From positions 1-20,102 of IMG/VR virus record IMGVR_UViG_3300042516_000050: a stretch of DNA of 20,102 nucleotides, one strand, 5' to 3'. Positions 18,080 to 19,986 of the stretch are shown here, one piece after another (position 1 is the stretch's first letter; every line of letters starts with the position of its first letter). The position numbers were made by a program, and so were the translations under genes. This stretch comes from a virus. Below the pieces are notes generated by a model. The model was not told the origin of the DNA, did no database searches, and was given only the letters and a program-made list of their open reading frames with translations.

Positions 18080-18270
18080 AGTCTACGCTGGCAGGTAAAG
18101 GCTTGGATGTCTACGCGAAATGCCCCTGCAAATTTGCAATCAGAGGCTATCCGAGATTCTGTTTGAATCCCACCGATATACCAGCCGATAACGCAGAGGA
18201 TGATGGCAACGATAGACTTAGCCCACCATTTATTGACCATCTCGATTGCTTTAGTGATGTCATTTGTCAT
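18076..18270 (-). CDS. Small single-helix membrane protein
   Basis: This 64-residue protein has one membrane segment, SIVAIILCVIGWYIGG (about 19-34). The C-terminal part, SDCKFAGAFRVDIQAFTCQR, has two Cys that could pair if periplasmic. The CKFAGAFRVDIQAFTC arrangement looks like a known small phage membrane protein, from memory. The start is inside the MazG-like gene's last codons (11-base overlap), and its stop overlaps the next gene. Its role is unknown. Confidence 0.65.
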   Translation of the reverse strand: MTNDITKAIEMVNKWWAKSIVAIILCVIGWYIGGIQTESRIASDCKFAGAFRVDIQAFTCQRRL

Positions 18271-18568
18271 CTTTAACGAATACCCCTTCTTTGTTTAGAT
18301 AGCCTTTACGATCCTTAATCTGCTCGTAGGCTGACTGGAAGCATTGCTTTAGATCGACATCTTCAATAGCAGCAACCATAGTAAGGCATACAAGAACATC
18401 CCCAAGTCCATCGATAATTGATTCACGGTCTCGCTTGGTAATCGCATCTGCTAACTCTCCCATTTCAGAAAAAGCCTTCAATAGCTGCGTCTTAGCGTCA
18501 GAGTTCTGAATAATCCCTCTAGCCTCACCCCAACGTACCACTAATAGTTCTGTAGCCTCGTAGCTCAT
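18260..18568 (-). CDS. MazG-like nucleotide pyrophosphohydrolase
   Basis: This 102-residue all-helical protein is likely to cleave nucleoside triphosphates to monophosphate and pyrophosphate. The motif KAFSEMGELADA supplies E35 and E38, and DGLGDVLVCLTM supplies D53 and D57. Together these form the four-acid metal site of MazG-like enzymes (EXXE followed by [DE]xxxD). Phage copies may adjust nucleotide pools or the stringent alarmone. The start overlaps the XRE gene stop as ATGA. Substrate is not readable from sequence. Confidence 0.85.
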   Translation of the reverse strand: MSYEATELLVVRWGEARGIIQNSDAKTQLLKAFSEMGELADAITKRDRESIIDGLGDVLVCLTMVAAIEDVDLKQCFQSAYEQIKDRKGYLNKEGVFVKDDK

Positions 18569-18756
18569 AGGAAGCTCTCAATCTCAACGATAGGCATATT
18601 GAAAGCCTTGTGAATGGCGATCTTAGTCTCAGCCGATACCCCGTTATGACCGTTACGAATCTTGCTAATCGTAGGCATTGATACACCTATTCTTAGGGCT
18701 AGTTGACGGTCGTTCTTGATCTTGTGCGTTTCTTTCAAATAGTCCAACAGTTTCAT
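18565..18756 (-). CDS. XRE/Cro-type helix-turn-helix regulator
   Basis: This 63-residue protein is little more than one DNA-binding domain. Helices 2 and 3 read NDRQLALRIGVSMPTISKIR (about 15-34), with the recognition helix SMPTISKIRNG. The spacing and the end, ETKIAIHKAFNMPIVEIESF, fit the Cro/CI-like family. TAGGAGAAATC before the ATG is a good ribosome site. A short hairpin lies in the leader. It is likely to control the early operon. With no integrase in the window, a lysogeny role cannot be assumed. Confidence 0.88.
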   Translation of the reverse strand: MKLLDYLKETHKIKNDRQLALRIGVSMPTISKIRNGHNGVSAETKIAIHKAFNMPIVEIESFL

Positions 18757-18774
18757 GATTTCTCCTAAGTTAAT

Positions 18775-18790
18775 GCCCGTCTTTCCGGGC
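18775..18790 (-). promoter_or_regulatory. Leader hairpin before the XRE gene
   Basis: GCCCG (18775-18779) pairs with CGGGC (18786-18790) across a 6-base loop. On the minus strand it reads GCCCGGAAAGACGGGC and ends 18 bases before the XRE start. No T-run follows. It may be a weak pause or terminator, or a block to ribosome loading. Confidence 0.4.
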
Positions 18791-18852
18791 TGTCTGCATA
18801 CTCACATAGAAGGGGAGACAAACGTAAAGGAGCTATGCGTATGCTGCGTAGG

Positions 18853-18939
18853 TTACTTGCCACCTATCGCTAGGCCGAAGGGTGAGGTACTCGCAGCACC
18901 AGTTCTATCCTTGACGATTATTAATCGAAAAGCTGGCAT
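18853..18939 (-). CDS. Possible 28-residue peptide
   Basis: A short frame on the minus strand reads MPAFRLIIVKDRTGAASTSP followed by FGLAIGGK. GAGGG sits 7 bases before the ATG. It starts 16 bases after the stop of the Cys-rich gene and lies in the same direction. At this length an open frame can arise by chance, so it is only a candidate. If real, it has a short hydrophobic strand and a basic middle. Confidence 0.3.
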   Translation of the reverse strand: MPAFRLIIVKDRTGAASTSPFGLAIGGK

Positions 18940-18955
18940 TAGCTTTCCCTCATGG

Positions 18956-19102
18956 TTAATAGCAGTTCGTATTACATGAGGCTCCATAACAGCAAGTTGT
19001 ACAATTTACGCATCGACCAGCATCACAGTATGTATGATAGGTACAAGTAGCGTAAACGAGTGGTGCTGTAACGGCTAACCAAAGTGCGAATAGGTATTTC
19101 AT
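18956..19102 (-). CDS. Exported 48-residue peptide with eight cysteines
   Basis: I found this gene by hand on the minus strand. The signal peptide MKYLFALWLAVTAPLVYA (1-18) ends in a good cleavage site. The mature 30 residues (TCTYHTYCDAGRCVNCTTCC, then YGASCNTNCY) hold Cys at 20, 26, 31, 34, 37, 38, 43 and 47, enough for four disulphides. GAGGAGGAG, two bases before the ATG, is the strongest ribosome site of the leftward run. It overlaps by two bases the stop codon of the SSB-like gene upstream. The product likely goes to the periplasm. I know no function. Envelope modification or superinfection exclusion is a guess from place and export. Confidence 0.7.
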   Translation of the reverse strand: MKYLFALWLAVTAPLVYATCTYHTYCDAGRCVNCTTCCYGASCNTNCY

Positions 19103-19111
19103 AACTCCTCC

Positions 19112-19351
19112 TCAAAATGGCGCGTCATTTAGATCATCGTCCTGAAACTCAACCTTCTTTGCTGGCTTTTTAGTTTCTTTCTCCTTAACCGCTAGAGAGA
19201 AAAACTTACCGTTCTTGCCCTCCTTAAGCCAGCCAGAGAGCCAGTAATCCTTGCCATCAATGTTGATCGTTCCGCTATAGTCCGGGTGCTTGTCAGACTG
19301 CTTGTTAGTGTTGCGACCCAACATACCGCGATTAGTGTTGTCGTATTCCAT
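19112..19351 (-). CDS. Small SSB-like protein with acidic Pro-Phe tail
   Basis: This 79-residue protein reads MEYDNTNRGMLGRNTNK, then HPDYSGTINIDGKDYWLSGW and a basic stretch. It ends in FQDDDLNDAPF. The acidic tail ending Pro-Phe is the mark of bacterial and phage single-strand DNA-binding proteins, whose tails recruit repair and replication enzymes. The body (SGTINIDGKDYWLSGWLKEG) looks like a small OB-type beta sheet and is shorter than a normal SSB. It follows the ERF gene, and its ribosome site AAAGGA lies inside the ERF stop region. The pairing with a single-strand annealing protein fits a recombination role. Confidence 0.7.
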   Translation of the reverse strand: MEYDNTNRGMLGRNTNKQSDKHPDYSGTINIDGKDYWLSGWLKEGKNGKFFSLAVKEKETKKPAKKVEFQDDDLNDAPF

Positions 19352-19353
19352 GA

Positions 19354-19374
19354 TTATCCTTTAGTAAATTTCTT
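19354..19374 (-). repeat. Gene-junction repeat, copy 1 (ERF end)
   Basis: These 21 bases match 19990-20010 at 19 positions. On the minus strand they encode the ERF C-terminus (KKFTKG and stop) and also hold the ribosome site AAAGGA for the next gene. The two differing bases are adjacent. Confidence 0.75.
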
Positions 19375-19986
19375 GATTGCTGATCGTTGCTTGCTATCCA
19401 ACTGGCTCCAGAGTGCAGTCTTCCAATCTGCGTCTAGTTCCAGAGAATTGATGTACTCCACAGCTTCCGCTACCTGATCCTTGTGAATCATCAGGATAAT
19501 GTCTGCTGCGTAGCTACGAATCTCATCTTGAGATTGTTCGTCTAACGTATCGAATACGGACTTAGTAATCGGTTTAGCGGACTTAGGTTCTTCTTTTTGA
19601 ATAGTTGCATCTACTGCGTCGTGTTCTGTAATCTCAAGGGCATTAAGAAAAAGGTAACGACGTAAGTAGGTATGCTGGCTTCCAAGTGCCTGAATCGGTG
19701 GTGCTTTGCCACTAGACGCATCAGCTAATGGACTGCGAAAACAGACTTCACCACCGCTGTCACAGTCAACTATCGTGAGCAATGCGGATTCAGAGTAGAT
19801 GCTGAATACAGAGCAAAGGTTCAATTCTGCAAATATCGTATTTACTGACGGTAAAAAATCACTAAGCTCAAAGTATTTGAACCCAGCATAAGAGTTATAG
19901 CCAGATTTCTTTAGCTCCATTGATTGAAGTTTGATTCGTGCTTGTTGTAGCTTTGCGTACACGAGCCATTGTTGATTGGTATCCAT
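19354..19986 (-). CDS. erf: ERF-family single-strand annealing protein
   Basis: This 210-residue protein would pair complementary single strands in phage recombination or genome circularisation. The ERF pattern is visible: GYNSYAGFKYFELSDF (29-44), then a central beta/helix core, then LGSQHTYLRRYLFLNALEIT with EHDAVD (101-126). The C-terminal part (about 130-210) is helical and ends KKFTKG. AAAGGATAAATA before the ATG is a good ribosome site. It lies between a partial upstream gene and the SSB-like gene, a typical recombination cluster. Confidence 0.88.
   Translation of the reverse strand: MDTNQQWLVYAKLQQARIKLQSMELKKSGYNSYAGFKYFELSDFLPSVNTIFAELNLCSVFSIYSESALLTIVDCDSGGEVCFRSPLADASSGKAPPIQALGSQHTYLRRYLFLNALEITEHDAVDATIQKEEPKSAKPITKSVFDTLDEQSQDEIRSYAADIILMIHKDQVAEAVEYINSLELDADWKTALWSQLDSKQRSAIKKFTKG

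What the first reader, a model, noticed from the sequence alone, without database searches (positions are those of the whole stretch)
18956..19102. Eight-cysteine exported peptide in the early operon
The 48-residue gene has a clean signal peptide, a mature part with eight Cys in 30 residues, and the strongest ribosome site of its operon. It lies between an SSB-like protein and a regulator, not in the lysis cassette. Early expression of an exported, disulphide-rich microprotein suggests envelope modification, such as superinfection exclusion or inhibition of a host periplasmic target. It is also below most gene-caller length limits.
Basis: partly seen in the sequence, partly recalled or inferred. 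Interest (0 to 1): 0.75.

Follow-up and report, generated by a model that had tools for sequence, protein, structure and literature searches.

The report
Phage-encoded exported disulphide-stapled mini-protein family
A tiny gene next to this phage's DNA-recombination genes encodes a secreted, 30-residue, cysteine-rich peptide that belongs to a large, apparently undescribed family found in hundreds of environmental phages, and it probably acts on the envelope of the infected bacterium.

Summary
The 48-codon gene (18956-19102, minus strand) is real. More than 500 relatives occur in IMG/VR, under strong purifying selection (pN/pS about 0.12) and with six invariant cysteines. No Pfam, PHROGs, NCBIfam or PDB family matches, and no cellular homologue was found. 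The window's copy belongs to an eight-cysteine branch; the two extra cysteines occur together or not at all (46 and 75 of 121 sequences), although the tree needs only one change. All relatives tested have a signal-peptidase-I-type leader (AxA site) and none has a lipobox. AlphaFold2 with the family alignment gives a three-stranded beta-meander whose register places all eight cysteines as four cross-strand pairs, and every indel in the mature part falls in one of the two turns. The gene follows the SSB/Erf module and is a clean present/absent cassette: 35 of 64 related loci have it, 29 do not. Best reading: an exported, non-lipidated effector acting in the host periplasm or outer membrane, most likely superinfection exclusion or envelope takeover, comparable to Llp or Rtp45 in action but not in ancestry. 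Target and timing are untested. Incidentally, a conserved structured RNA with no Rfam match starts 4-7 nt after the stop codon in most of 136 (of 338) loci.

The parts
18956..19102 (-). CDS of the Cys-rich exported mini-protein (48 aa)
   Evidence: >500 relatives; pN/pS 0.12
19049..19102 (-). signal peptide, residues 1-18, ending in Val-Tyr-Ala (AxA site); no lipobox in 109 of 109 relatives
18959..19048 (-). mature peptide, residues 19-48; predicted strands 18-27, 30-39, 42-47; inferred cross-strand disulphides C20-C37, C26-C31, C34-C47, C38-C43
   Evidence: AlphaFold2 with 26-row alignment, pLDDT about 82-85 in the mature part; indels only in the two turns; C26/C31 present or absent together. 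The pairing is my inference from the register; no coordinates were read.
19105..19113 (-). Shine-Dalgarno GAGGAGGAG, overlapping the TGA of the SSB-like gene (19112-19114)
19112..19351 (-). SSB-like protein, directly upstream (context)
   Evidence: PHROG 7364, E 2.7e-18
19354..19986 (-). Erf-type ssDNA-annealing protein (context)
   Evidence: PF04404, E 3e-11; PHROG 155
18759..18955 (-). conserved structured non-coding RNA element directly after the stop codon (context; also present in phages without the Cys gene)
   Evidence: no Rfam match
18565..18756 (-). Cro/CI-type HTH regulator (context)
   Evidence: PF01381, E 1.6e-7
18260..18568 (-). MazG-type pyrophosphohydrolase (context)
   Evidence: PF03819, E 1.4e-9

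Best explanation
A phage effector exported by Sec and cleaved by signal peptidase I. It folds in the host periplasm into a 30-residue, three-stranded beta-meander held by three (family core) or four (this branch) cross-strand disulphides. Translated from a very strong ribosome site that overlaps the SSB stop codon, it is made together with the recombination/replication proteins. Once outside the cytoplasm it binds a conserved periplasmic or outer-membrane component of the host and changes or blocks it, most likely excluding competing phages or remodelling the envelope during infection. Shown: gene, conservation, selection, leader type by sequence, operon position, cassette behaviour. Predicted: fold and disulphide pairing. 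Inferred: export in vivo, timing, target and purpose.
For: Six Cys invariant in 109 distinct complete proteins. Purifying selection on saturated synonymous sites, pN/pS 0.12 in the 8-Cys set, with Cys codons freely switching TGC/TGT. Uniform AxA-type leader and 0 of 109 lipoboxes. Meander prediction, consistent with the indels confined to the turns and with the joint presence/absence of C26 and C31. SSB/Erf/RecT/Sak/RecE-like module upstream in 118 of 135 loci with at least 3 kb upstream, on the same strand in 86. Precise cassette gain or loss, typical of an accessory, non-structural function. No true hit among 84,980 species genomes by pattern scan or about 800 genomes by profile, so it is a gene of viruses and not a common prophage gene. 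Small periplasmic beta-hairpin/disulphide proteins are a proven phage strategy: T5 Llp jams FhuA (PMC9586334) and Rtp45 distorts LptD (PMC12685063).
Against: No experiment, no target and no promoter evidence. Llp is encoded beside its receptor-binding protein (PMC9586334); this gene is not. The mature sequence is nearly constant across unrelated phages, which is unexpected for a receptor-specific exclusion protein. Nearly half of the related loci do without it (29 of 64). The model has moderate confidence (pTM 0.41), and the AlphaFold predictions for Llp and Rtp45 were inaccurate according to those papers.
Confidence: 0.4

Rival explanations
1. Inhibitor of a conserved host envelope machine or periplasmic enzyme (for example a beta-barrel assembly or LPS-transport component, or a periplasmic protease), for takeover rather than exclusion. 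The tiny sheet with its usually aromatic last residue might add an edge strand to its target.
For: Near-constant mature sequence across diverse phages, as expected for a conserved target; C-terminal F or Y in 157 of 167 distinct hits; open beta edges in the predicted meander.
Against: The OMP beta-signal pattern (own knowledge) is not met apart from the last residue: position -2 is Asn, Ser or Thr, not aromatic, and a few members end in N or L. No binding data.
Confidence: 0.22
2. Lysis-timing factor: a periplasmic antiholin or anti-endolysin that delays lysis, in the manner of T4 RI.
For: Exported and small, and T4 RI also lies outside the lysis cassette (own knowledge).
Against: Found in phages with at least two different endolysin types (clusters 22 and 28); in the window encoded on the opposite strand from the lysis genes.
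Confidence: 0.1
3. Peptide released from the cell, acting on neighbouring bacteria as a bacteriocin-like agent or signal.
For: Size, disulphide ladder and beta-hairpin form resemble secreted antimicrobial peptides (own knowledge); strong ribosome site.
Against: Little net charge (one Asp, one Arg, one His in the mature part), no recognisable immunity gene beside it, and mature sequence constant rather than diversified as in arbitrium-type signals.
Confidence: 0.1
4. Metal- or redox-binding periplasmic peptide (metallothionein-like, or a sink for the host disulphide machinery).
For: Eight Cys in 30 residues, CxxCC motif.
Against: Export to the oxidising periplasm; Cys spacing and parity fit cross-strand disulphides; conserved Thr and aromatic residues are not metallothionein-like.
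Confidence: 0.07
5. Chance ORF, not translated.
For: None found.
Against: Conservation, purifying selection, stops in the other frames of most relatives, a ribosome site in nearly all.
Confidence: 0.01

Closest known systems
T5 Llp and the Cor family (superinfection exclusion lipoproteins acting on FhuA)
   Same: Small phage protein sent across the inner membrane, with an intramolecular disulphide, expressed early in infection (Llp; PMC9586334 and its references).
   Different: Llp and Cor are lipoproteins and Llp is encoded beside the receptor-binding protein gene; here no lipobox in 109 of 109, no receptor-binding gene adjacent, three or four inferred disulphides, no sequence match.
Rtp45 of phage Rtp (exclusion protein bound to LptDE)
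   Same: About 6 kDa, periplasmic, disulphide-bonded, with a beta-hairpin, adds a strand to an outer-membrane protein (PMC12685063).
   Different: Lipid-anchored, one disulphide, no sequence match.
UniProt A0A6J5M8Q5, 'Lipoprotein' of an uncultured Caudovirales phage
   Same: Same family: 49 aa, 47% identity, Foldseek E 7e-5, TM 0.72.
   Different: The name is probably automatic; family members examined here lack a lipobox.
Unannotated gene of Manatee Spring phages MW202462/MW202544
   Same: Full-length 6-Cys relative, 54% identity.
   Different: Lacks the second Cys pair; lies outside the recombination operon on the other strand; missed by the depositors' annotation.
Cystine-ladder beta-hairpin peptides (tachyplesin, protegrin)
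   Same: Cross-strand disulphides on a hairpin (recalled from memory, not tested).
   Different: Those are cationic animal peptides with one hairpin; this one has three predicted strands and little net charge.

Membership tests
Llp/Cor/Rtp45-type exclusion lipoproteins | lipobox [LVI][ASTVI][GAS]C and lipid anchor | tested here: not met
   0 of 109 members; box is [WY]AxC or AWAC
Llp/Cor/Rtp45-type exclusion lipoproteins | sequence homology to solved members (Llp and Rtp45 complexes are deposited in the PDB) | tested here: not met
   no PDB chain at E up to 10 with the family profile; I did not check separately that both chains are in this copy
Llp/Cor/Rtp45-type exclusion lipoproteins | gene beside the receptor-binding protein gene (stated for Llp) | tested here: not met
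   neighbours are SSB, Erf, HTH and MazG; replication/recombination genes in most loci
Llp/Cor/Rtp45-type exclusion lipoproteins | blocks infection by related phages at the receptor | not testable with these tools
   needs expression and adsorption assays
The Cys-rich exported mini-protein family described here | AxA leader, six invariant Cys with spacing C-x13..14-C-x2-CC-x4..8-C-x3-C, mature part of about 30 residues | tested here: met
   alignments A3/A4, column census
Inhibitor cystine knot / VI-VII framework peptides | C-C-CC-C-C order with I-IV, II-V, III-VI pairing | tested here: inconclusive
   the order of the six core Cys matches, but the predicted strand register implies I-III, II-VI, IV-V; pairing not measured
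Metallothionein | cytosolic, Cys-rich, no aromatic residues, metal thiolate clusters | tested here: not met
   signal peptide and conserved Tyr/Phe; metal binding itself not testable

The most novel reading that the evidence does not exclude
A widespread new class of phage takeover protein: one of the smallest known stapled beta-meanders, carried as a swappable cassette in the recombination operon and aimed at one conserved envelope machine of (probably) betaproteobacterial hosts, with its mRNA often followed by a previously undescribed structured RNA.
Probability: 0.15. Interest if true: 0.85.

Novelty: new variant of a known kind. Interest (0 to 1): 0.6.

Why it matters
The family has over 500 members in one viral collection, yet no entry in the curated family libraries searched, and it is missed even in deposited genomes. 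Its near-constant 30-residue mature part, kept by phages that share little else, points to a conserved envelope target in environmental Gram-negative bacteria. A peptide this small can be synthesised and tested directly, and natural pairs of nearly identical phages with and without the cassette make its function testable.

Tried and rejected
Cellular homologues: the seven hits in 399 genomes were leader-only matches (for example MerP-like proteins) or frames with stops; the single genome-contig hit L151 is unrelated DNA. Pfam EptA_B_N and LPAM_1 matches are weak and leader-based. PDB fold hits are generic, E of at least 0.4. Repeated covariation of C26/C31: rejected as statistics, because the tree needs only one change. 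Single-sequence AlphaFold model: poor (pLDDT 60). DNA comparison of the operon with cultured phages: no match. Plasmids: no match. Promoter/terminator scan: not above shuffles. Literature on small Cys-rich phage exported proteins: no paper found with the terms used. Lipoprotein reading: rejected.

Full report
WHAT IS THERE. The minus-strand ORF 18956-19102 encodes MKYLFALWLAVTAPLVYATCTYHTYCDAGRCVNCTTCCYGASCNTNCY. It has the strongest Shine-Dalgarno of its operon, overlapping the stop codon of the SSB-like gene. None of 200 shuffled versions of the window yields an ORF with such a Cys density.

A LARGE CONSERVED FAMILY. 345 loci held here (some overlapping) carry a hit, with 167 distinct sequences. 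The core is roughly C[ST]TH[TS][IY]xxxGRxVTCTTCC[YF]xx[NS]CxT[NST]C[FY]-stop. In 109 distinct complete proteins the six core Cys, T36, T45 and A18 are invariant. pN/pS is 0.12 within the 8-Cys set; in the 6-Cys set it is 0.21 in the mature part and 0.44 in the leader. No family match was found in Pfam, PHROGs, NCBIfam or the PDB. One UniProt entry named 'Lipoprotein' is a member, and two deposited Manatee Spring genomes hold an unannotated one.

EXPORT. Every member has a basic start, a hydrophobic stretch and an AxA site with Trp or Tyr in the middle, followed at once or after one residue by the first Cys. None of 109 has a lipobox. I therefore infer signal peptidase I cleavage after Ala18 and a soluble 30-residue product.

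FOLD. AlphaFold2 with 26 family members gives a leader helix and strands 18-27, 30-39 and 42-47, with mature pLDDT about 82-85 and pTM 0.41. With two-residue turns at 28-29 and 40-41, residues facing each other sum to 57 in the first hairpin and 81 in the second. This pairs C26-C31, C20-C37, C38-C43 and C34-C47, using all eight Cys. Two further features agree: all indels in the mature part lie in those two turns, and C26/C31 are present together or absent together (42/67; 46/75). The tree shows one change only, so this is a single event and not a statistical covariation. A diverged tandem paralogue in eight loci keeps the exact eight-Cys spacing while most other residues change and the AxA site is lost.

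CONTEXT. In 118 of 135 loci with at least 3 kb upstream, an SSB, Erf, RecT, Sak or RecE-like exonuclease gene lies upstream, on the same strand in 86; families were named with PHROGs, except cluster 7, which I call RecT-like from its sequence without a library match. Among relatives of the window's Erf gene with room downstream, 35 of 64 carry the Cys gene and 29 do not. Alignment of nearly identical phages shows a precise insertion or deletion of the gene with its ribosome site between the SSB stop codon and the downstream RNA element. Six- and eight-Cys versions occupy the same slot in related phages. So the gene is an exchangeable accessory cassette, cotranscribed with replication genes by position; there is no sign of a promoter of its own.

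HOST. The closest cultured relative of the window's tail protein is Methylophilales phage Venkman (46%). For a portal protein from another carrier, cultured relatives include Xanthomonas phage PBR31 (44%) and Rhodoferax phage P26218 (39%). A betaproteobacterial host is a reasonable guess for this lineage, no more. Another carrier (L113, 56 kb contig) has a PolA related to gammaproteobacterial phages, so the family crosses phage groups. No true homologue came from 84,980 species genomes by pattern or from about 800 by profile, so prophage carriage is rare or absent. Those searches had no positive control among cellular genomes.

MECHANISM. The anatomy (Sec leader, stapled sheet, strong ribosome site, replication-gene position, dispensability) fits an exported effector acting on the envelope of the infected cell. 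Small periplasmic phage proteins are known to distort outer-membrane proteins: Llp on FhuA (PMC9586334) and Rtp45 on LptD (PMC12685063). The family works plausibly like them, but the membership features tested (lipobox, homology, linkage to the receptor-binding gene) are not met. The constancy of the mature peptide suggests one conserved target rather than the phage's own receptor. I put 0.4 on an exclusion/envelope effector in the broad sense and 0.22 on inhibition of an envelope machine for takeover.

INCIDENTAL RNA. Directly after the stop codon lies a conserved non-coding element (18759-18955). Thirteen versions fit a 39-pair structure with 99.6% of cells paired and nine pairs with double changes, values reached by none of 500 shuffles. 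Related sequences can exceed such shuffles without structure, but the slid controls fall to 25-48% paired. It has no Rfam match. Its first domain (stem-GAAAG...AGUA-stem) lies just after the Cys stop codon in 136 of 338 loci, nearly always with a gap of 4-7 nt; 211 places were seen against 12 in shuffled loci. The element also follows the SSB gene where the Cys gene is absent.

Noticed in passing
window 18759-18955 (-); many loci: Conserved structured RNA of about 200 nt between the Cys gene and the HTH gene, several domains, compensatory pair changes, no Rfam match. The first domain (stem-GAAAGC...GCGAGUA-stem-ACC, resembling a bulged-G motif) lies 4-7 nt after the Cys stop codon in nearly all of 136 of 338 loci and occurs in tandem in some (L267, L271).
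   Followed up: partly
L006, L008, L010, L020, L021, L024, L025, L026: Diverged tandem paralogue MTYLLAISLSLPPPDTLEKCFWRHYCTLEKCVSCSICCYESSCMKSCF with identical eight-Cys spacing but a degraded leader, about 255 nt upstream of the normal gene.
   Followed up: partly
L184, L190, L212: Short conserved 37-aa relative MAKRILAALSI(A/V)LATSAWAQCTTHAITANGRVVTCTV that stops after the first hairpin, in three contigs that also carry the full gene; on the opposite strand in L184.
   Followed up: partly
L293 1250-1700: Here the Cys gene lies between the first and second RNA domains, with a further first-domain-like copy upstream: gene and RNA domains look like separately movable pieces.
   Followed up: no
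L338 6344-6419: tRNA-Thr (TGT) about 190 nt downstream of the Cys gene.
   Followed up: no
L349 832-898 (-): int-alpA RNA (RF02996) match in a carrier contig.
   Followed up: no
MW202544 14777-15019 / MW202462 33654-33896: Annotated hypothetical protein (UOF78377/UOF77143) lies opposite the family gene and is probably a mis-called ORF.
   Followed up: partly
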